A stretch of DNA of 45,934 nt from IMG/VR virus record IMGVR_UViG_3300028536_000126, positions 1-45,934 of that record, one strand, 5' to 3'. The position numbers and the translations under genes were made by a program. Source of the DNA: a virus. Of the stretch, positions 2,372 to 27,466 are shown one piece after another; within the stretch, counting starts at the first letter, position 1, and each line of letters opens with the position of its first letter. The notes below the pieces were generated by a model. It was not told the origin of the DNA and did no database searches. It saw nothing but the letters and a program-made list of their open reading frames with translations.

Positions 2372-3967
2372 TTGACCACGACGACCGTCCGGCCGAACGG
2401 TGTGGCGCAGCAGGGGTCCTGGACGGTGGTCGGCGCGGCTGACGCCGCCGTCGCGCTGAGCGACAACACCGATTCGACCTATGTGCAGCTGACCCCCCGG
2501 TGTCGGTTGGACATCGACCGGATGCGGGTCACCGTGCCGGCGCCCACCCTGCCGTCCGGGGCGCAGATCTCCTCGGTGGGCATCCGGATGCGGATCCAGA
2601 CCGTGGTGTGGCCGGCGCCGCAGCCGCAGTGCCTGGGCTGGTTCCGCTGCCACCGCCCGCCGAACATCATCACCGCGATCATCGACCTGATTCTGCTGCT
2701 GCTGTTCGGCTGGCGTTGCCCGCAGCAACCCACCGTCGTGTGGGTGACCCAGTCGCTGCAGAACCAGACCAGCGACCCCTCCGGCAACCCGTGGACCCTG
2801 GCCAGCTTCAACAACTTCGAAGTCAACATCGGCCGCGACGACGTGTACGCCAACCCGCTGCGGGTGGCCGAGGTCTACGTGGACGTGGTGTACACCCAGC
2901 AGTCCGCGGTGACCGTCACCGCGCCGACCGGGACCGTCACTACCACCTGTCGCCCCACCGTGGCCTGGTCCTACACCCAGCCCGACGCCAACCCGCAGGC
3001 CAAATATTGGGTGGTCATCTACACGGCGGCGCAGGTCGCCGCGAGCGGCTTCGTGCCATTCGTGTCCACCCCGCTGCAGTCCTCCGGGTGGGTGTTCGGC
3101 ACCGACCTGCAATGGACGCTGAACTCCGACATCACCAACGGCACGTACTACGCCTACGTGCAGGTCGGCCAGACCTGGCCGGGCGCGGGCGACTTCATCT
3201 CCCCGTACGCCTCGATCAACTGGACCCAGTCGATCGCGGGCGCGCCGAACGCGGTGCTGTCCTCGGCGGTGTTCGACACCATCTACAACCGGGTGACCCT
3301 GCAGCTCACCCAGGGCGGGTCGAGCCCGGCCACCGCCGCCTTCGCGGTGCAGTGCAGCCGGGACTCCGGCATCACCTGGGGCCCGGTGCGCGGCGGGCTG
3401 CTGCTGACCAACACCGGCGGCACGCTGACCGTCTACGACCAGCAGGCGCCGCTGAACGTGCCCAGCCAGTACCGCGTGCTGGCCTACGGACAGACCGGTT
3501 CGCTGCTGTTCGCCGCCGCCGGCTACTCCAACGTGCTGACCGTGACACCCACCGGCAGCACGTTCTGGATCAAGGACCTGATGGATCCGACGATGAACAC
3601 GCCGCTGCCGGTGAAGTACCAGGGCGACCAGGTCACGCAGCGCCGGATCCAGGGCACCTTCGAGGTGCTCTCGGGCAACCTGACCACCCAGAAGCTGGTG
3701 GTCAACGGCCCGATGTACGGCATCGAAGGCACCCTGACGCTGATCTTCCACAGCCGCCAGCCGGTGGACTACTGGGCGGCGTTCCGCCGGGCGGATCAGT
3801 CCGGGCACGTGCTGCTCATGCAGTACCCGTCCGGTGAGCAGCACTTCGTGATGTTCGGTCCCGGCGCGGTCGGCTCCGACATGACCTGGACGTATGAGTA
3901 CCAGCCGAACTACCGCGAGGTGACCGTCTCCTACACCGAGGTCGCGGAGCCGGCGATCACCTCGTAG
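2372..3967 (+). CDS. Minor tail protein
   Basis: 531 residues starting with TTG eight bases after the tape measure stop, with only a weak purine-rich stretch before it. The middle part (about residues 180-300) looks like a fibronectin-III or Ig-type beta sandwich (TVTAPTGTVTTTCRPTVAWSY), and the C-terminal part has the length and position of a distal tail or tail-tip adaptor. Its place right after the tape measure and before the DUF5047-type genes fits a distal tail/minor tail protein. The exact structural role is inferred from gene order rather than from a diagnostic motif. Confidence 0.65.
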   Translation: MTTTTVRPNGVAQQGSWTVVGAADAAVALSDNTDSTYVQLTPRCRLDIDRMRVTVPAPTLPSGAQISSVGIRMRIQTVVWPAPQPQCLGWFRCHRPPNIITAIIDLILLLLFGWRCPQQPTVVWVTQSLQNQTSDPSGNPWTLASFNNFEVNIGRDDVYANPLRVAEVYVDVVYTQQSAVTVTAPTGTVTTTCRPTVAWSYTQPDANPQAKYWVVIYTAAQVAASGFVPFVSTPLQSSGWVFGTDLQWTLNSDITNGTYYAYVQVGQTWPGAGDFISPYASINWTQSIAGAPNAVLSSAVFDTIYNRVTLQLTQGGSSPATAAFAVQCSRDSGITWGPVRGGLLLTNTGGTLTVYDQQAPLNVPSQYRVLAYGQTGSLLFAAAGYSNVLTVTPTGSTFWIKDLMDPTMNTPLPVKYQGDQVTQRRIQGTFEVLSGNLTTQKLVVNGPMYGIEGTLTLIFHSRQPVDYWAAFRRADQSGHVLLMQYPSGEQHFVMFGPGAVGSDMTWTYEYQPNYREVTVSYTEVAEPAITS

Positions 3968-19543: not shown

Positions 19544-19762
19544 TCACACGGAATTCTTGTGCACCCCGTCGGCGCCGTCGGGGATCTTGGTCGGCGTCCG
19601 GGCCCACTCGCGGGCCGCCTCGTAGGCGGCTTCGCTCGCCTCGTGGTTACGTCCGTCGTCGCAGGTGTAGCCGTCCAGCCCTTCGCCGGTCTCCCAGTCC
19701 CCATCCAGTCCCGGGCCTACCTGGCGCCCGCACTTGAGGCAGGGCCACGTCGGCCAGCTCAT
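19544..19762 (-). CDS. Small zinc-finger-like protein after the Ro60 gene
   Basis: 72 residues; ATG at 19762 overlaps the TGA of the TROVE gene (ATGA), so translation is coupled. The head WPCLKCGRQVG with a later YTCDDGRNH suggests a small metal site; the rest is acidic helix (EASEAAYEAAREWART). It is the last leftward gene. Whether it works with Ro60 is unknown, but the coupling makes it a candidate partner. Confidence 0.6.
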   Translation of the reverse strand: MSWPTWPCLKCGRQVGPGLDGDWETGEGLDGYTCDDGRNHEASEAAYEAAREWARTPTKIPDGADGVHKNSV

Positions 19763-21402
19763 GACGTGCTCACCTCCCACGGCCACCGGCCGTTGGTGCC
19801 GACCGACTCCAGCATCGGGATCATCTTGAACCCCTGATCCGTCAGGCCGCCGAAGGTGTGCCGATTGGACGAACCCGACGCGGCGTGGCCACGCTCGTAG
19901 CCGGCCAGGTTCCAGGTGTAGATGGGCGTGGCCGGGATCTGCGCGCCCACCTCACCCTGTCCACCCCAGGCCTGCTCGTCGGTCAGGATGACCACCCGGT
20001 CGTGCCCGCTGAAGTGCGCGCGCAGCGCGAGCTCGGTCTGCGTGCCACCGCCCAGGAAGAACCCGTCCCGGTCCCAGCGCGCCACCATCGCCAGCAGCGA
20101 CTCACCGGCCCGCAGCGGGTACACCTTGGATGCGCCGCCCACCGGGTCGCTGTAGTAGTGCTGGCTGGAGGAGAACGACACCAGGTCCACGCGGTGGCAG
20201 CGGGTGGCCAGGGCGCAGCCGAACAGCGCCGCCGCGTCCCAGCGCATCAGGCCCGAGCGGTCCGACATCGGCGAGTGCATCGAGCTCGAGGTGTCCACCA
20301 GGATCAGGGTGCGGCCGGTGACCGTCGGGATGTTGCGCAAAGCCAGGTTCACCGCCTGATCCAGCGGCCACTTCCACCGGTCCGACGGCGCGTTGCGGTA
20401 GGCGGACAGGAACCGCATCGGCAGCTGCCGGGACCGCGCCACCTCCTCCGGGCTGGACAGCTTCGCCGCCACCTTCTGCGCCACCTGATCGGACACCCCG
20501 GCCTGATCGAAATTCCTCAAGTTCCTGAGCAAGGCCATGTAGCCCATGTTCGGGATGATCGCCTCCCAGGCCTGGCGGTCCATCGGGCCCTGTAGCCAGC
20601 CCGCCAGCGCCTCCCAGGTCATCCCGGCGTCCTTCAGGCGCACCGGGTCCAGGGCGGCCCGGCGCTCGTTCACCGGCAGCGCCATCAGGGCCTTGCGCCG
20701 GGTCAGGGTCTGCAGGCCCTCCGGGATCTGGGCGTCCGGCTCGTACTTGGCCTTGATGATGTGCCCGAACAGGTCGTTCTGCCAGCCGGCGCGGATGCGC
20801 TGATTCGACCGCTTGGCGTCGCCCGGGTGGGTCAGGTTCAGCAGCCGGTCGAAGGTGTAGCCGCCGGACTCGCCGTACTTGAGGTAGTTCATCTCCGAGC
20901 CCAGCCGGATCATGGCGTCGGCCACGCCGCGCTTGACCGGCCACGGGATGGACTTGCCGTACTGGGTGGTCCAGTAGGCGATCATCTCGCCCGGCTCGTC
21001 GGCCCGCAGGATCACCGAGTCGACCACCTTGCGCCCGGTCGGCGCGCCCAGCACGGCCGAGGTGCGGGCGATGGCCGTCTTCACGTACTCGGCCGCGCCC
21101 ACGATGGCCGCGCTGCGCATGTTCGCCTCGGTGCGCAGCCAGCGCAGGAACGCGGCCACCCAGGCGGGGTCCTCGGCGGTCACCTGGCGGATCAGGTGGA
21201 CGTAGCGCAGGTCGCCCTTCTTGGCGTCCTCGTAGAACGAACCCTCCCCGCTGAACCGCGAGACCGCGTAGAGGAAGAGCTCGGAGCGTCCATCCCGGGC
21301 GAAGCCGGGGCCACCCTCGAAGGTCGTGCCGGAGGGGGTGCGCTCGGAGGCGACAGGGGAGTAGACCTGCGGCTTGGCGCTGGTCGTGTTAAAGCGGGCC
21401 AT
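19759..21402 (-). CDS. TROVE-domain RNA-binding protein (Ro60/Rsr-like)
   Basis: 547 residues. ATG at 21402 has AAAGGAGG eight bases upstream. Ro60 proteins are ring-shaped: a TROVE HEAT-repeat ring binds Y RNA outside and misfolded RNA ends in the hole. The first about 360 residues show the TROVE pattern (DGRSELFLYAVSRFSGEGSF, LRWLRTEANMRSAAIVGAAE, SGGYTFDRLLNLTHP). A vWA domain fills residues about 366-530 with MIDAS residues Asp370-Thr-Ser-Ser-Ser, Thr at about 454 in GGGTQT and Asp475 in LTDEQ. Length equals cellular Ro60. An array of six Y-RNA-like units ends 21 bases upstream on the same strand, strongly supporting a Ro60/Y-RNA pair. Confidence 0.92.
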   Translation of the reverse strand: MARFNTTSAKPQVYSPVASERTPSGTTFEGGPGFARDGRSELFLYAVSRFSGEGSFYEDAKKGDLRYVHLIRQVTAEDPAWVAAFLRWLRTEANMRSAAIVGAAEYVKTAIARTSAVLGAPTGRKVVDSVILRADEPGEMIAYWTTQYGKSIPWPVKRGVADAMIRLGSEMNYLKYGESGGYTFDRLLNLTHPGDAKRSNQRIRAGWQNDLFGHIIKAKYEPDAQIPEGLQTLTRRKALMALPVNERRAALDPVRLKDAGMTWEALAGWLQGPMDRQAWEAIIPNMGYMALLRNLRNFDQAGVSDQVAQKVAAKLSSPEEVARSRQLPMRFLSAYRNAPSDRWKWPLDQAVNLALRNIPTVTGRTLILVDTSSSMHSPMSDRSGLMRWDAAALFGCALATRCHRVDLVSFSSSQHYYSDPVGGASKVYPLRAGESLLAMVARWDRDGFFLGGGTQTELALRAHFSGHDRVVILTDEQAWGGQGEVGAQIPATPIYTWNLAGYERGHAASGSSNRHTFGGLTDQGFKMIPMLESVGTNGRWPWEVSTS

Positions 21403-21423: not shown

Positions 21424-21527
21424 GGTTCCGCGATAGAAGTGATTGCCACGGTCTTGCCGTATCGAAACGGCGGCCCCGGATTAGGGGGCTTCATCCACGA
21501 AGTAACCGTAGCGTGGGCGTCGGTACC
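21424..21527 (-). ncRNA. Y-RNA-like unit 1 (nearest to Ro60 gene)
   Basis: 104 nt. The RNA starts GGTACCGACGCCC and ends ATCGCGGAACC, giving the same closing stem as its neighbours with one A-A mismatch. GGTTACTTC follows as in other units and sits in a hairpin closed by CCACG/CGTGG. The insert differs from units 2 and 3: it has hairpins GCCCC/GGGGC and GCCGT-TTCGAT-ACGGC, the latter T-loop-like, but no clear D-arm in the tRNA order. Confidence 0.75.
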
Positions 21528-21542
21528 AGATATTCAGTTAGA

Positions 21543-21661
21543 GGTTCCGCGATCAGGCAGGCGACGGTTAGCCGGCATGCCAAGTCGCCGGCAAATGGGC
21601 CCGTGAGGTGACCCATCCAGGATTCGAACCAGGAAGTAACCGCTTCCAGGGCGTCGGAACC
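21543..21661 (-). ncRNA. Y-RNA-like unit 2 with circularly permuted tRNA mimic (YrlA-like)
   Basis: 119 nt; closing stem GGTTCC/GGAACC with GACGCC and ATCGC on the two sides. The insert reads in the order T-arm, acceptor, D-arm: T-arm at 21617-21633 with 7-base loop TTCGAAT, a 7-bp acceptor-like stem at 21595-21616 abutting it with no gap and closed by an 8-base loop, two nucleotides, then a D-arm at 21571-21592 (GCCGGC stem, loop containing GG). These spacings equal those of tRNA. Known YrlA RNAs have this permuted layout. Confidence 0.85.
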
Positions 21662-21676
21662 AAATATTGAGTTAGA

Positions 21677-21817
21677 AGATCCGCGATTAAAGGCGACCAC
21701 AGTTCTTACGCCTGTTGCTCTACCAACTGAGCTACCCTCCCACGAGTGGAAGGGCCTGGACTCGAACCAGGGACCCACAGTTTCCATTGAAGTATCTGTA
21801 ATCTGGGCGTCGGATCT
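21677..21817 (-). ncRNA. Y-RNA-like unit 3 with near-perfect permuted tRNA mimic (YrlA-like)
   Basis: 141 nt, closing stem AGATCC/GGATCT. T-arm at 21755-21771: CCTGG, loop TTCGAGT, CCAGG. Acceptor-like stem at 21735-21754: CCCTTCC with GGGAGGG, 7 bp, 6-base loop. Then TA, as tRNA positions 8-9, then D-arm at 21717-21732: GCTC, loop AGTTGGTA, GAGC. CTGT before the T-arm can pair with ACAG after the D-arm, as an anticodon-stem remnant leading into the Y stem. It is not a normal tRNA because ends and order are permuted and no anticodon loop exists. Confidence 0.9.
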
Positions 21818-21835
21818 CGCTATCGAATTATGAGG

Positions 21836-21910
21836 AGGGCCGCGATTAAAATTACCGGCGACGGTGGCACTTTTGAAAGAAGTAACCGTCTGTGGCGGGG
21901 CGTCGGCCCT
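21836..21910 (-). ncRNA. Y-RNA-like unit 4, short form
   Basis: 75 nt, closing stem AGGGCC/GGCCCT with the conserved GACGCCCC and ATCGC. GGTTACTTC is conserved within ACGGTTACTTC, and ACGGT can pair with a downstream ACCGT. There is no room for a tRNA-like insert, so this is a minimal Y RNA. Confidence 0.8.
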
Positions 21911-21930
21911 CAATGCATATGGAGTTGTGG

Positions 21931-22014
21931 AGGGTTCCGCGATCGGTAGTGCTGCCGGTCCAGGGGGTACTTTTAGCGGAAGTAACCTGAGTTGGCCTAG
22001 GGCGTCGGAACCCT
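21931..22014 (-). ncRNA. Y-RNA-like unit 5, short form
   Basis: 84 nt with the strongest closing stem of the array, 8 bp (AGGGTTCC/GGAACCCT), then GACGCCC and, near the 3' end, ATCGC. GGTTACTTC is kept. The apical part (CCGGCAGCACTACCG) may form a small hairpin. No tRNA-like arms. Confidence 0.82.
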
Positions 22015-22027
22015 GTTGAGTTGTAGG

Positions 22028-22108
22028 GAGGTCCGCGATACTAGTTGACCTATGTCCGGCGTAGTTTCACCAAAAGAAGTAGCCGGGGCGGTCGGGGCGT
22101 CGGACCTC
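22028..22108 (-). ncRNA. Y-RNA-like unit 6, short form, first in the transcript
   Basis: 81 nt, closing stem GAGGTCC/GGACCTC followed by GACGCC and preceded by ATCGC at the 3' side. The 5' strand GGTCCGACG closely recalls the GGUCCGA of vertebrate Y RNAs that binds Ro60. The conserved box is changed to GGCTACTTC. Upstream (22109-22158) I see no clear promoter, so the array is probably part of the long leftward transcript or uses a non-consensus promoter. Confidence 0.8.
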
Positions 22109-22920: not shown

Positions 22921-23024
22921 CGCCGACCCCGGCACACTCGACACTCGCCGGTGTCCGGGTCGATGTTGTAGATGTCGGAGCAGTCGTGACGGTCGATCTC
23001 GACGTCGCCTTCCATGAAGTTCAT
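22917..23024 (-). CDS. Very small Cys-containing protein, 35 residues
   Basis: ATG at 23024 overlaps the stop of the nucleotidyltransferase gene (TGATGA) and the stop overlaps the next GTG. The product is MNFMEGDVEIDRHDCSDIYN followed by an acidic stretch and CRVCRGRR; three Cys and one His could bind a metal. Coupling on both sides supports translation. Function unknown. Confidence 0.5.
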   Translation of the reverse strand: MNFMEGDVEIDRHDCSDIYNIDPDTGECRVCRGRR

Positions 23025-23908
23025 CAGTGCAGTCCCCAGTGTCGTAGGTGCGCGTCCACCAGCCAGGTGTTGATCCGGCCCCAGTCCGGCTCCTTGGGTA
23101 GCGTGCTGTGCTCCATGGCCGCCTCCAGCTGCGGCTCCAGACGCAGCGCCTCCTCCAGGCACCACTCCTTGGTGCGCTGGCCGTTGCGCACCGCGCGGCA
23201 GATCTCCAGCACGTGTCCTTCCATCGGCAGGGTGATCTCCCCGGTGCGCAGCAACTCGAGACCCTGATACCCCAGCCGCAGCATGTGCATGGCGAACTTG
23301 ACGTCGAACCCGTAGCGGGCCCGGATGTCGGCGCGGCCCTGGTTGCGGGTGCCGCCGGAGCGCAGCCCCATCAGGCCCTCCCGCTGGCTGTGCATGTAGC
23401 CCTTGAACCGCAGGCCGCACTGCTTGGACAGGAACATGTCCCGGTGGGCCCGCAGCTCCTCGCCGAGCTCCGTGCAGTAGCGCACCGCGCTGTTGGGCAC
23501 GAACAGCGGCAGCAGCACGGTGGGGTTTCCCCTGGCGGCCAGGCCGGCGTACTTGCGCAGGCTGTAGACGATCAGGTCCAGGTCACCGGGCCCGGACACC
23601 ACCGACTGGCCGCCGACCGGGCCGTGCGGCTCCACGGTGCGGTAGACGTAGTGCTCGAAGGAATCCAGGCCGAGCGTGGTGTGCGGCTGCTCGACGGCGA
23701 TGCCCATCTCGTCGATGTCGTCTTGGCCGTCGATGGCGGTGCCGTGCACGGTGGACCCGACCAGCACCCGCAGGATCATCCCGGCCTTGGCGGTCCACTG
23801 CTCGATGTCGTTGGAGTACAGCGGCACCATCTCCCCGAGCGCCTCGGTGTGCACCTCGACCGGCACGGGGTTGGTCGCGCCGTAGTTCATGCCTCGGATC
23901 CCCTTCAC
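23024..23908 (-). CDS. Nucleotidyltransferase, RlaP/COG3541-like
   Basis: 294 residues from GTG at 23908, which overlaps the upstream TGA; ATG at 23890 is an alternative. The core motif LVGSTVHGTAIDGQDDIDEMGI is the polymerase-beta-type active site with paired Asp, as in the RlaP group, whose members are often coded beside RNA ligases. Further conserved blocks are LDLIVYSLRKYAGLAARGNP and FKGYMHSQREGLMG. RlaP-type enzymes are predicted to add nucleotides to RNA ends. Its place in the same train as Ro60 and Y RNAs suggests RNA end processing, but no ligase is seen in the window. Confidence 0.8.
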   Translation of the reverse strand: MKGIRGMNYGATNPVPVEVHTEALGEMVPLYSNDIEQWTAKAGMILRVLVGSTVHGTAIDGQDDIDEMGIAVEQPHTTLGLDSFEHYVYRTVEPHGPVGGQSVVSGPGDLDLIVYSLRKYAGLAARGNPTVLLPLFVPNSAVRYCTELGEELRAHRDMFLSKQCGLRFKGYMHSQREGLMGLRSGGTRNQGRADIRARYGFDVKFAMHMLRLGYQGLELLRTGEITLPMEGHVLEICRAVRNGQRTKEWCLEEALRLEPQLEAAMEHSTLPKEPDWGRINTWLVDAHLRHWGLH

Positions 23909-24215: not shown

Positions 24216-25283
24216 CTACGCGCGCTGTCGGGTGATGCTGGTGGCCAACGCCGCGCCGATGAACACGATGCCCAGCGAGCCAACCAGCCACTCCGGCAGG
24301 TCCACCCCGTAGAGCTTCGACATCATCACCAGGCCCAGGAACAGGATCGCCCAGTGCGCGCCGTGCTCCAGGAACTCGTACTTGGCCAGGGTGCCGGTGC
24401 GGACCAAGTGCACGGTCATCGACCGCACCCACATCGCCCCGGCGCCCAGCCCGGCCATGATGACCAGGACCGAGGTGGTGATGGCGAACGCACCGATCAC
24501 CCCATCGAAGGAGAAGCTGGCGTCCAGCACCTCCAGGCGGACGAACATGACGGCCGCGGCGGCCCCGATCAGCGTGGTCAGCTTGCCGCGCCCCGGCTTG
24601 CCCTCATCCTCCTCATCCTCGCCGTCGAACACGGCGCCGAACAGGTCCAGGCCGACGTGCAGCAGTACTCCGATGATCGCGGCGGCGAAGACCGCGGTCC
24701 GCTCGGCCGGGCCCACGGTGAAGAACGCGAGCACCGCGACGGTGAGCATCACGAAGATGGTGATGTTGTCGAACCGGCCCAGCGGGGCCAGCCGAGACTC
24801 CAGCCAGCCGATCCAGTGCACGTCCTTCTCCGTGTCGAGGAAGTAGCTGACCCCGATCATGAGCAGGAACGTGCCGCCGAACGCGTCGATCATCGGGCCG
24901 GCCTCGGCCAGGTGCTGCGCGTACACGGTCGGCTGGTGCACGGCCAGGCTGACAACCTCGGTGAAGCCCAGCCCGGCCGCCAGCTGCACGATGAAGATCG
25001 GCAGCGCGAACCGCACCACAAAGACCGCGATGACGATGCCCACCGTCATGAACGCCCGCTGCCAGCCCGGCGACAGGCGCTGGATCAGCTTCGAGTTCAC
25101 GATGGCGTTGTCGAACGAGAACGTCACCTCGAGCGCGGTCAGGATCATGACGGTCAGCAGCGATACCCAGCCGCCGTAGAACCCCACGCTGGCCCAGGCC
25201 AGCAGGGTGACGCCAGCCGAGGGCCCGTAGATGGCCCACAGGTTCACCTGGTCCCGCGCCGACACCTCGGTCTCGGCGATCAC
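24216..25283 (-). CDS. TerC/DUF475-like integral membrane protein
   Basis: 355 residues from GTG at 25283 (GTGA overlap with the vWA gene). About nine hydrophobic segments are visible. The motif ALEVTFSFDNAIVNSKLIQR and the later DASFSFDGVIGAF match the paired acidic membrane motifs of the TerC/DUF475 superfamily. A charged loop (FDGEDEEDEGKPGRGK) separates the halves. TerC-like proteins act with TerD and vWA proteins in Ter stress systems, possibly as metal-ion transporters. All three kinds are adjacent here. Confidence 0.85.
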   Translation of the reverse strand: MIAETEVSARDQVNLWAIYGPSAGVTLLAWASVGFYGGWVSLLTVMILTALEVTFSFDNAIVNSKLIQRLSPGWQRAFMTVGIVIAVFVVRFALPIFIVQLAAGLGFTEVVSLAVHQPTVYAQHLAEAGPMIDAFGGTFLLMIGVSYFLDTEKDVHWIGWLESRLAPLGRFDNITIFVMLTVAVLAFFTVGPAERTAVFAAAIIGVLLHVGLDLFGAVFDGEDEEDEGKPGRGKLTTLIGAAAAVMFVRLEVLDASFSFDGVIGAFAITTSVLVIMAGLGAGAMWVRSMTVHLVRTGTLAKYEFLEHGAHWAILFLGLVMMSKLYGVDLPEWLVGSLGIVFIGAALATSITRQRA

Positions 25284-26053
25284 GTCAGCACCCCGGCCTT
25301 CTGGGCGGCGGCGACCCAGAGGTCCCACTCGTCGGCCATGGCGTCGGCGAACTCCAGGTCGGACACGGACGAGGGGTCCGCGAACGACTTCGAGTTGACG
25401 TTGTCGAGCAGCCGCTGGTCCGGGCTCATGTTGTCGAGCTCGTCCAGGTAGGAGACGGAGCGGATGGCCAGGAACTTCAGGAACACCGGGTAGCCGGCCA
25501 GTTGGCACACGATCTTCGTCGTGTTGGCCTTGGAGTCCGGGTTCCCGTCGGTGACGACCACGCAGAAGATCGGCTCGTCGGTGGTCTCGGCCAGTCCCCG
25601 GACCGCGACCAGGGCGGACGCCAGGTCGGTGGTGCCCATCCTGCGCGGGTTCCAGAGCTGGTTGTCGACGACGCCGCGGTAGTTGTCGACGGTCACATCG
25701 ACGGCGTCGTGCACGAACGAGTCGAACGCGATCACCGGGACGGTGCCGTCCACGTCGATCTGCAGGGCGAACCCGAGGACGCGTTCCACCAAGGTCTGCA
25801 CCTTGCCGTTGGCGTAGTCGGCGTGCATCGAGCCGGAGTGATCCAGCACCAGCACGGCCTGCGCGCGGATCCCGGCCAGGCCCCGCTTGGACAGGGCAAT
25901 GCCGGCCTTGTCGGCGCGCTTGGCCAGGTCGATGTGCCCGGCCTCCCTCACCTTGGACAGGTTGATCGCCGAGGAGCCGGTGGCGTCCTTGGTCAGGCGG
26001 ATGGTCCGGGCCGGACCGGTTGGGTCCTCGGATTGGCGATTGAACAAACGCAT
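25280..26053 (-). CDS. vWA-domain protein of the Ter cassette (TerF/TerY-like)
   Basis: 257 residues. Residues about 18-60 contain repeated INLSK/IDLAK/IALSK motifs like the TerD N-terminus. A vWA domain follows, with MIDAS motif Asp71-His-Ser-Gly-Ser in LVLDHSGSMHAD, MGTTDLA and VVVTDGNPDS. Metal-ion-dependent vWA proteins are a core part of Ter systems. It lies between TerD and the TerC-like protein, the usual cassette order, and is translationally coupled to the latter. Confidence 0.85.
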   Translation of the reverse strand: MRLFNRQSEDPTGPARTIRLTKDATGSSAINLSKVREAGHIDLAKRADKAGIALSKRGLAGIRAQAVLVLDHSGSMHADYANGKVQTLVERVLGFALQIDVDGTVPVIAFDSFVHDAVDVTVDNYRGVVDNQLWNPRRMGTTDLASALVAVRGLAETTDEPIFCVVVTDGNPDSKANTTKIVCQLAGYPVFLKFLAIRSVSYLDELDNMSPDQRLLDNVNSKSFADPSSVSDLEFADAMADEWDLWVAAAQKAGVLT

Positions 26054-26096
26054 GGTCGTGGTCTCTCTCTTAGCGGGGAAGGGGGCGGGTTGGGGG

Positions 26097-27113
26097 TCAG
26101 CCGATGTGGTAGGCGGTCACGAGCCCCTGCAGCTCGTCTTTGAACCCGTCGCCGATGGCCCGGAAGTTCCACGACGCACCGTGGCGGTAGAGCTTGCCGA
26201 ACACCAGCGAGTTGACCCCCACGCTGGCGTCCTCGGTGAGGTCGAACCGGGCGAGCTCGGTGTTGCTGGACTCGTCGATGATCCGGACGAACGCGTTCTC
26301 CACCAGCCCGAAGTTCTGGCCGCCGCGGGCCTGCGCCTCGTGGATGGTCACCGCCACCACCAGCTCGGTGACCTCGGCCGGCACCCGGGCCAGGTCCACC
26401 ACGATCTGCTCGTCGTCGCCGTCGCCACCACCGGTGAGGTTGTCGCCCTGGTGCACGATCACGTCGCCCGGGGCCGCCATGTGGTTGTAGAAGACGAACC
26501 ACTCGGGACTGACGCACGCGCCGGAGGAGTTGAGTCCGATCACGGAGGCGTCCAGGTCGTAGGCCGGGCCGTCGGTGCGCCGCACGTCCCAACCCAGTCC
26601 GACGCGCACCTTGTTCAGGGTGCCGCCGGCTTCCTTGGTGAGGTCGACCTTGCCGCCCTTGGACAAGTTGATAGCCATGGGATTTCCTTTCGTTGGTTTA
26701 CCGCTGATGACCACGCCTGAGGGGGCGGTGGCCAGGGTCATGCCGATCTCACTCAGCCACGGGTGTAGCGGGGTGTCGGCAAGCTTGGAGAGTTCGTGGG
26801 TGTCGCGGTAGCGCCCGGCTTCGGAGGTGCGGCAGATTCCAGCGGCCACCACAGAGATGCCGTTCCACTGGCCGATCTGCACCCACTCGGCCGGGTCGAC
26901 GGCCATGATGACCGCGCCCCAGTGGTTGGCCAGGGCGGTGGGGACGTAGGCGTCGCGCCCGGCCATCTGGTCGGTGGAGCGCCCGCCGGCCACGCTGACG
27001 AACTGGCGCAGCAGGTACCAGCCCCGGTTGGTGATAGCGAGCGAGCGAGCGGAGAAGTCCCTGGCGGACAGGCCGAGGTCGGCCCGGTTGGCGGGTGTCC
27101 AGCGTGTGGCCAT
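26097..27113 (-). CDS. TerD-family protein with in-frame N-terminal extension
   Basis: 338 residues from ATG at 27113. The C-terminal 193 residues, starting at Met 26678, are a complete TerD protein: AINLSKGGKVDLTKEAGG, GLGWD, DLDASV, FVFYNH, and the calcium-binding acidic loop DNLTGGGDGDDEQI. The first 145 residues (RWTPANRADLGLSARDFSAR, then LANHWGAVIMAVDPAEWVQI) are not a family I recognise. No stop separates the parts, but a good ribosome site precedes the TerD Met, so both a fusion and a separate TerD may be made. TerD proteins are Ca-binding stress proteins. Confidence 0.75.
   Translation of the reverse strand: MATRWTPANRADLGLSARDFSARSLAITNRGWYLLRQFVSVAGGRSTDQMAGRDAYVPTALANHWGAVIMAVDPAEWVQIGQWNGISVVAAGICRTSEAGRYRDTHELSKLADTPLHPWLSEIGMTLATAPSGVVISGKPTKGNPMAINLSKGGKVDLTKEAGGTLNKVRVGLGWDVRRTDGPAYDLDASVIGLNSSGACVSPEWFVFYNHMAAPGDVIVHQGDNLTGGGDGDDEQIVVDLARVPAEVTELVVAVTIHEAQARGGQNFGLVENAFVRIIDESSNTELARFDLTEDASVGVNSLVFGKLYRHGASWNFRAIGDGFKDELQGLVTAYHIG
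26683..26690 (-). promoter_or_regulatory. Internal ribosome-binding site for TerD
   Basis: AAAGGAAA on the minus strand lies a few bases before ATG at 26678, which opens the canonical TerD start MAINLSKGG. It supports independent initiation of TerD inside the longer frame. Confidence 0.55.
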
Positions 27114-27466
27114 CACGGACCCGCCTTCCCCTCCAGCTCGTCGGCCTTGTCCCGCAGGTGGTCGGCGGCGTCGTCCAGTCCGTTGGCCTGCTGGTCGACC
27201 GCTTCCCGGGCCTCAATGTCCTGGTCGCCCTGCGGCAGCGGCTTGCGCTTCTCGGTGGCCCACTCCTCCAGCTCGTCGGCGGTGGTCCGCAGTAGGGCCA
27301 CGTTGGACGCGCGGGCCACGATGGTGATCTCCTGCACCCGCCTGGCCGCTTCGCTGGCGTTCTTCAGGGCGAGCTCCCGGGCGCACTGCACGCAGATCGT
27401 CGGGCCGCCGCAGCGGTCCTTGCTGCCGTCCTCGCGGGGGTGAACCCAGCCGTGGCCGCCGGTCAT
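27113..27466 (-). CDS. Helical protein with Cys pair
   Basis: 117 residues; ATG at 27466 overlaps the upstream stop. Cys residues in DRCGGPTICVQCAREL suggest a small zinc site; the rest is charged helix, partly coiled-coil (EAVDQQANGLDDAADHLRDK). The stop overlaps the next start. Function unknown. Confidence 0.6.
   Translation of the reverse strand: MTGGHGWVHPREDGSKDRCGGPTICVQCARELALKNASEAARRVQEITIVARASNVALLRTTADELEEWATEKRKPLPQGDQDIEAREAVDQQANGLDDAADHLRDKADELEGKAGP

What the first reader, a model, noticed from the sequence alone, without database searches (positions are those of the whole stretch)
21424..22108. Array of six tandem Y-RNA-like genes directly upstream of a phage Ro60 gene
Seen: six units of 75-141 nt on the minus strand, separated by 13-20 bases. 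Each starts GGnnCC-GACGCC and ends ATCGC-GGnnCC with compensating base changes in the closing stem (AGGGTTCC/GGAACCCT, GAGGTCC/GGACCTC, AGGGCC/GGCCCT, AGATCC/GGATCT). All but one keep GGTTACTTC or a one-base variant, and unit 3 has a weaker match. The array ends 21 bases before the ATG of a full-length TROVE/vWA gene. Known: bacterial Ro60 genes are often next to one or two Y RNAs. Inference: the phage carries an expanded Y-RNA set for one Ro60, so Ro60 might be tethered to several different partners.
Basis: partly seen in the sequence, partly recalled or inferred. Interest (0 to 1): 0.92.

Follow-up and report, generated by a model that had tools for sequence, protein, structure and literature searches.

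The report
Phage Y-RNA array beside Ro60 gene
This soil actinobacterial virus carries six different small-RNA genes of the Y-RNA kind in a row in front of a Ro60 gene; related viruses carry three to nine, so one Ro60 protein can probably be fitted with several interchangeable RNA handles, some of which imitate tRNA.

Summary
Six minus-strand units (22108 to 21424) precede an intact Ro60 gene. They share a fixed 5'/3' junction (CCGACGCC ... ATCGCGG), an ACTTC core and a unit-specific closing stem, and are separated by short AT-rich linkers.

In 13 units from the window and a sister phage, each stem pairs with its own partner better than in any of 20,000 permutations. Covariance models built only from other loci find all six units on the right strand. 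Unit 4 scores 106.9 bits (E 8e-29) and is a permuted-tRNA (YrlA-type) Y RNA. Units 1, 3 and 5 are significant, unit 6 weakly so (E 0.0025), and unit 2 is borderline (E 0.09).

The Ro60 model matches solved Ro60 structures. The sister phage, binned with Streptosporangiaceae, has seven orthologous but partly turned-over units. In the loci I counted, chromosomal Ro60 genes have two or three units and phages three to nine, so six is expanded but not the maximum.

An RlaP RNA-repair gene lies nearby. I read the array as Y-RNA adaptors for one Ro60: constant address, variable payload. Different partners, or decoys against tRNA cleavage, are plausible but untested. Phage Y RNAs were already known: a new variant of a known kind.

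The parts
22028..22108 (-). Y-RNA unit 1, short type (81 nt), no tRNA part; core GGCTACTTC; payload hairpin like short Y RNAs of other phages and of chromosomal Ro60 loci
   Evidence: R1 28.9 bits, E 1.2e-4, model built without window or sister phage; ortholog S1 in L012, where an inner helix GACC/GGTC is kept as GGTC/GACC
21931..22014 (-). Y-RNA unit 2, short type (84 nt)
   Evidence: R1 16.9 bits, E 0.086 on its own; same 5'/3' address and 9-bp closing stem; nearest unit in the sister phage is S6
21835..21911 (-). Y-RNA unit 3, short type (77 nt)
   Evidence: R1 31.0 bits, E 3.7e-5; fold z-score -3.4; ortholog S3
21677..21818 (-). Y-RNA unit 4, YrlA type (142 nt): circularly permuted tRNA, T arm, then acceptor, then D arm
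   Evidence: R2 106.9 bits, E 7.6e-29; Rfam YrlA 38.7 bits, E 9e-7, at 21690-21793
21543..21661 (-). Y-RNA unit 5 (119 nt): T-arm-like motif without a D arm, plus two further hairpins
   Evidence: R2 25.8 bits, E 8.7e-6; R1 19.4 bits, E 0.021; ortholog S5
21424..21527 (-). Y-RNA unit 6 (104 nt): T-arm-like hairpin GTTTCGATAC; closing stem with an A-A mismatch shared with the sister phage
   Evidence: R2 17.2 bits, E 0.0025; ortholog S7
21424..22108 (-). whole array; inter-unit linkers of about 13-19 nt carrying an AACTnAA-like element, possible RNA-processing sites
   Evidence: all 11 linkers of window plus L012 carry an AA(C/T)T-type element; similar CACAACTTCA linkers in other phage and chromosomal arrays
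19759..21402 (-). Ro60 ortholog (TROVE + vWA, 547 aa), MIDAS DTSSS at residue 370
   Evidence: Pfam TROVE 58 bits; PHROG 850 'RNA-binding protein', E 1.3e-45; AlphaFold2 model matches Thermus phage phiLo Ro60 and vertebrate Ro60; MIDAS intact
23024..23908 (-). RlaP nucleotidyltransferase (RNA-repair pathway), neighbouring gene; RlaP is also near Ro60 in the sister phage and in two Gordonia phages
   Evidence: Pfam RlaP, E 7.8e-30; same family in L055, L021, L026
24216..27116 (-). Ter-type stress genes (TerC-like/DUF475, vWA-TerF-like, TerD)
   Evidence: Pfam matches

Best explanation
The array is a set of six Y RNAs made for the adjacent phage Ro60. It is probably transcribed as one precursor, possibly with the Ro60 message, and cut at the AT-rich linkers. 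Each mature RNA keeps the same Ro60-binding address (closing helix with GACGCC/ATCGC junction) and a conserved ACTTC core, but carries a different payload: three short hairpin RNAs, one permuted tRNA, and two with only a T-arm-like element. Ro60 rings loaded with different Y RNAs would differ in what they bring along, for example PNPase or tRNA-binding and tRNA-modifying enzymes, as YrlA does in Salmonella. The RlaP gene nearby suggests that this serves tRNA/RNA repair or quality control during infection. Shown here: homology, structure, covariation, conservation and gene context. Inferred: transcription, processing, Ro60 binding, and distinct partners.
For: Stem complementarity exceeds all 20,000 permutations. 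Models built from other loci find the units: W4 106.9 bits (E 7.6e-29), W3 31.0, W1 28.9, W5 25.8, W6 17.2, W2 16.9, all on the minus strand. 23 of 27 pairs covary in 26 tRNA-type units. The sister phage has seven units with turnover. Nearly every one of 26 curated loci has both short units and a permuted-tRNA unit. Ro60 fold. RlaP near Ro60 in four phages. No promoter-like site and no minus-strand terminator-like site between array and Ro60. Literature: YrlA basal stem binds Rsr and its tRNA-like domain serves PNPase and tRNA-modifying enzymes (PMC8394870); abundant RNA species near an Rsr-like gene in a Listeria phage were proposed to be Y RNAs (PMC12282133).
Against: No expression data exist for this phage. 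Rfam YrlA stays below its gathering score (38.7 against 69), although chromosomal Y RNAs next to Ro60 score only 30-56. Unit 2 alone is not significant, and unit 6 has an imperfect stem. No partner of the short or T-only payloads is known. The promoter and terminator scans are weak tests in a G+C-rich actinophage.
Confidence: 0.62

Rival explanations
1. Decoy set: the tRNA-like payloads (unit 4, parts of 5 and 6) are baits that occupy host tRNA-cleaving or tRNA-modifying enzymes, with Ro60 acting mainly as a stabiliser. The array would then be a counter-defence RNA sponge in an RNA-repair neighbourhood.
For: RlaP next to the array; an RNA ligase gene next to Ro60 in phage Kela; some related units enclose a tRNA in canonical order, e.g. 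L002 unit 3 with an Rfam tRNA score of 52.5 bits; phage TROVE proteins are placed among anti-tRNase repair genes (PMC7824862) and YrlA was suggested as a competitive inhibitor of an anticodon nuclease (PMC7790460).
Against: Payloads in the window lack an anticodon arm (unit 4 is a permuted T-acceptor-D module), so anticodon nucleases would not see their cutting site; half of the units have no tRNA part. YrlA is not itself cut in Salmonella (PMC7790460).
Confidence: 0.17
2. The units are mainly an mRNA leader: Ro60 not occupied by Y RNA binds the array in its own transcript and feedback-regulates its synthesis.
For: The array ends 21 nt before the start codon with no terminator-like site between. 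Four related loci have an SD-sequestering hairpin carrying the address CCGGTGCG.
Against: Units lie on both sides of Ro60, between tRNA genes, in Arthrobacter phage Atuin (L022), and Salmonella has rsr before yrlBA (PMC9879122). Payload variety is not needed for a leader. No such hairpin was found in the window.
Confidence: 0.1
3. Degenerate tRNA genes or recombination debris accumulated next to Ro60, without function.
For: Phage genomes of this group are rich in tRNA genes near Ro60.
Against: Compensatory stem changes, invariant core and address, and orthology across phages with independent address changes.
Confidence: 0.03

Closest known systems
YrlA (Rfam RF02553), bacterial Y RNA with tRNA-like domain (Salmonella yrlBA, actinobacterial Ro60 loci)
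   Same: Basal stem of 5' and 3' ends, permuted T-acceptor-D module, gene next to Ro60; unit 4 aligns over the whole model.
   Different: The window has one such unit among six. The others are short, or carry only a T-arm-like element. Score is below the Rfam cut-off, as for the actinobacterial chromosomal ones.
YrlB / short Y RNAs beside chromosomal Ro60
   Same: 72-86 nt, same core and, for unit 1, a similar payload hairpin.
   Different: Two to three Y RNAs per chromosomal locus against six here. The address sequence ACGCC/ATCG was seen only in this phage pair.
Putative Y RNAs of mycobacteriophages (Chen et al. 2014, cited in PMC12282133) and Listeria phage CKA15 (PMC12282133)
   Same: Phage Ro60 with putative Y RNAs nearby; in CKA15 three highly transcribed RNA regions lie near an Rsr-like gene.
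   Different: In CKA15 the identity of the RNAs as Y RNAs is a proposal only. I could not read Chen et al. 2014, so the number of units per phage that it reports is unknown to me.
Vertebrate Y RNA (Rfam RF00019)
   Same: Stem that binds Ro60, loop that serves other proteins.
   Different: No match in the region at E up to 5; the bacterial RNAs are described as not homologous to the vertebrate clades (PMC4726728).

Membership tests
Bacterial Y RNA (Yrl) family | Gene adjacent to a Ro60/Rsr gene | tested here: met
   21 nt upstream of an intact TROVE/vWA gene, Pfam 58 bits, Ro60 fold
Bacterial Y RNA (Yrl) family | Closing helix of 5' and 3' ends with a conserved junction, kept by covariation | tested here: met
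   66 pairs observed against a maximum of 63 in 20,000 permutations; invariant CCGACGCC/ATCGCGG in six units
Bacterial Y RNA (Yrl) family | At least one RNA of the locus has a tRNA-like (T, acceptor, D) domain | tested here: met
   Unit 4: R2 106.9 bits, E 7.6e-29; Rfam YrlA 38.7 bits
Bacterial Y RNA (Yrl) family | Expressed as a discrete small RNA bound by Ro60 | not testable with these tools
   No RNA-seq or binding data available
YrlA, Rfam RF02553 | Score at or above the curated gathering cut-off of 69 bits | tested here: not met
   38.7 bits for unit 4, none for the others; chromosomal actinobacterial relatives 30-56 bits, also below
Vertebrate Y RNA, Rfam RF00019 | Match to the Rfam model | tested here: not met
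   No hit at E up to 5
Ro60/Rsr protein | TROVE HEAT-repeat ring plus vWA domain with MIDAS motif | tested here: met
   Pfam TROVE, Foldseek to 9kop, 9l5y, 1yvp and 2nvo, DTSSS motif

The most novel reading that the evidence does not exclude
Phages have turned the Ro60-Y RNA pair into a modular adaptor cassette: one Ro60, an evolving array of three to nine RNAs with a lineage-specific address and exchangeable payloads (short hairpins, permuted tRNAs, T-arm-only modules, whole tRNAs), used with RlaP and RNA ligases to recruit or deceive different host tRNA and RNA enzymes during infection.
Probability: 0.35. Interest if true: 0.82.

Novelty: new variant of a known kind. Interest (0 to 1): 0.62.

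Why it matters
From what I could read, the partners described for bacterial Y RNAs are few: Ro60, PNPase and some tRNA-modifying enzymes. An array in which one Ro60 meets many payloads with the same address is a natural experiment: the payloads can be compared, pulled down one by one, and followed as they are gained and lost between sister phages. It also shows that phage Ro60 systems are common (432 confirmed relatives in viral contigs) and that their RNAs fall below Rfam cut-offs or are annotated as tRNA genes.

Tried and rejected
Rfam at gathering thresholds gives nothing in the window. ARAGORN finds no tRNA in the window or its units. A coding reading of the array was rejected because orthologous units differ by indels that are not multiples of three (unit 3: 79 against 83 nt; unit 5: 123 against 122 nt by motif anchors). 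Minimum-free-energy z-scores are modest (-0.9 to -3.4) and were not used as main evidence. The automatic consistency scan for array size is noisy for small arrays: it gave spurious units inside genes and missed some true ones, so I quote only counts backed by covariance-model hits or by reading the sequence. An SD-hairpin mimic of the address occurs in only 4 of 106 loci and not in the window, so it was not taken as a general mechanism. The key reviews and Chen et al. 2014 are not held, so what they report on unit numbers could not be checked.

Full report
WHAT IS THERE. On the minus strand between 22108 and 21424 lie six units, followed after 21 nt by the ATG of a 547-aa gene. Numbered in the direction of transcription they are 81, 84, 77, 142, 119 and 104 nt long (boundaries refined). 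Each has CCGACGCC at the 5' side and ATCGCGG at the 3' side, flanked by a stem that differs from unit to unit, and an ACTTC core further in. In order-1 Markov-resampled versions of the whole window the pair of motifs at 60-150 nt distance is found 0.175 times per 46 kb, at most once.

IS IT STRUCTURED RNA. I anchored the units on the two motifs only, not on pairing, and asked whether each 5' arm pairs better with its own 3' arm than with the arms of other units. With the 13 units of the window and its sister phage, 66 outer pairs form; 20,000 permutations never exceeded 63. For the window alone 4 of 720 permutations are as good. Inner helices are also kept: unit 1 has GACC/GGTC where its ortholog has GGTC/GACC.

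NON-CIRCULAR TEST. I built two covariance models from other phages and from chromosomal Ro60 loci, leaving out the window and the sister phage: R1 for the short type (25 sequences) and R2 for the tRNA type (20 sequences). R2 gives unit 4 106.9 bits (E 7.6e-29 for window plus L012), unit 5 25.8 bits (8.7e-6) and unit 6 17.2 bits (0.0025). R1 gives unit 3 31.0 bits (3.7e-5), unit 1 28.9 bits (1.2e-4) and unit 2 16.9 bits (0.086). All are on the minus strand. With the filters off, every unit still ranks at the top under the model of its own class; units 1 and 2 rank lower under R2, and unit 6 lower under R1. Across 26 tRNA-type units RNAalifold predicts 27 pairs, 23 with changes on both sides. 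The RNA reading is therefore firm for units 1, 3, 4 and 5, good for 6, and rests on array membership and its 9-bp stem for 2.

WHAT THE UNITS CARRY. Unit 4 is a circularly permuted tRNA: T arm, acceptor stem with a short loop, D arm. Rfam's YrlA model finds it at 38.7 bits, E 9e-7, below the gathering score of 69. Chromosomal actinobacterial Y RNAs next to Ro60 score 30-56 with the same model, so the cut-off does not speak against unit 4. Units 5 and 6 have a T-arm-like element but no D arm. Units 1-3 are short and have none. A survey of 122 curated units in 26 loci gives the same classes: 53 without tRNA parts, 42 permuted T-then-D, 23 T only, 2 in canonical tRNA order, 2 D only (motif-based, so approximate).

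RO60. The protein has the TROVE domain, the MIDAS motif DTSSS, and an AlphaFold2 model (mean pLDDT 78.8) whose best structural matches are a TROVE-domain crystal structure (9kop) and the Ro60 of Thermus phage phiLo (9l5y), then vertebrate Ro60 and D. radiodurans Rsr.

RELATIVES. The contig JAOPYH010000448.1 (L012), binned in a Streptosporangiaceae genome, is a sister phage: many of its stretches match the window at 70-84% DNA identity. It has seven units before a Ro60 of 79% identity. S1, S3, S5 and S7 correspond to window units 1, 3, 5 and 6; S4 stands at the place of unit 4 with a different tRNA-like module; S2 is an extra YrlA-type unit; S6 is nearest to unit 2 but at another place. In the two phages Ro60 and array have changed sides relative to the RlaP gene, so the pair moves as a block. 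Actinobacterial chromosomal loci have two or three units (L036-L041, L044). Phages have three to nine: for example GiJojo five, VanLee four, Neville four, L004 six, L108 nine by reading and by covariance models. These counts come from chosen loci, not from a full census. Each phage lineage has its own junction (address), e.g. C|GATGCG..TTTCTA|G in GiJojo and CCGGT|GCG..GTTA|ACCGG in Quantum, while the ACTTC core and payload classes stay. Unit 1 of the window and a unit of L002 share a payload hairpin but not the address. A constant address within an array and a shared payload between phages is what an adaptor set would show.

LINKERS. All eleven linkers of the two sister arrays contain an AACTnAA-like element and are AT-rich; CACAACTTCA-like linkers recur in many other arrays, including chromosomal ones. 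No promoter-like site is found in the region, and the only terminator-like site is on the other strand. I take the linkers as likely processing sites of a common transcript; this is inference.

CONTEXT. An RlaP nucleotidyltransferase gene lies about 0.9 kb upstream of the array on the same strand (Pfam E 7.8e-30). RlaP also lies near Ro60 in the sister phage and in Gordonia phages Neville and Rabbitrun, and Streptomyces phage Kela has an RNA ligase gene immediately before Ro60. RlaP is predicted to restore nucleotides lost from cleaved tRNA before ligation, and phage TROVE proteins have been placed with RNA repair (PMC7824862). Further along are TerC-like, vWA-TerF-like and TerD genes.

MECHANISM. 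Most likely the array yields six Y RNAs that load the same Ro60. The YrlA basal stem is described as binding Rsr, and its tRNA-like domain as serving PNPase and the tRNA-modifying enzymes DusA and TruB (PMC8394870). By analogy, unit 4 would do the same, while the other payloads would bring other partners or keep Ro60 closed. Shown here: homology, structure, conservation, turnover, context. Not shown: transcription, processing, binding, partners. The decoy reading is a serious rival, because payloads imitate tRNA in an RNA-repair setting; against it, the window's payloads have no anticodon arm and half of them no tRNA part.

KNOWN OR NEW. Y RNAs near bacterial and phage Ro60 genes are known, and tRNA mimicry is known. 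In Listeria phage CKA15 strongly transcribed RNAs near an Rsr-like gene were proposed to be Y RNAs, and that paper cites mycobacteriophage Y RNAs from Chen et al. 2014 (PMC12282133). I could not read Chen et al. 2014 or the later reviews, so I cannot exclude that arrays of this size were already listed there. What I add is the size of the arrays (up to nine), the constant-address/variable-payload organisation, the linkers, turnover between sister phages, whole tRNAs inside some units, and the RlaP association. I rate it a new variant of a known kind.

Noticed in passing
L017 2769-2843, L020 2704-2775, L025 2774-2847, L023 2745-2835: tRNA genes annotated in phages GiJojo (Arg cct), VanLee (Arg tct), Alone3 (Ser gct) and Frankenweenie (Pro tgg) overlap Y-RNA units. 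For the first three, ARAGORN joins the Y-RNA 5' address to the T arm, so they are probably not tRNAs.
   Followed up: partly
L002 3365-3502 (tRNA at 3408-3478) and L108 2181-2327: Y-RNA units that enclose a tRNA in canonical order, with an anticodon-like arm (Rfam tRNA 52.5 bits in L002). Possible baits for anticodon nucleases.
   Followed up: partly
L013, L014, L015, L075: last 40 nt before the Ro60 ATG: A hairpin pairs the Shine-Dalgarno sequence (GGAAGGAG) with CTCCT(C/T)CC and shows CCGGTGCG, the Y-RNA 5' address of these loci, in its loop. Suggests Ro60 autoregulation competing with Y RNA.
   Followed up: partly
L022 2446-5330: Arthrobacter phage Atuin has Y-RNA units on both sides of Ro60, interleaved with tRNA genes.
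   Followed up: no
window 23024-23908: RlaP RNA-repair nucleotidyltransferase near the array; found near Ro60 in four phages.
   Followed up: partly
window 24216-27116: Cluster of Ter-type stress genes (TerC-like/DUF475, vWA-TerF-like, TerD) on the same strand as Ro60; TerD-family or stress genes also lie near Ro60 in Streptomyces phages Alone3 and BRock.
   Followed up: no
L010: One viral Ro60 locus with a dense tRNA cluster in which no Y-RNA unit was found near the gene by scan or model R1.
   Followed up: no
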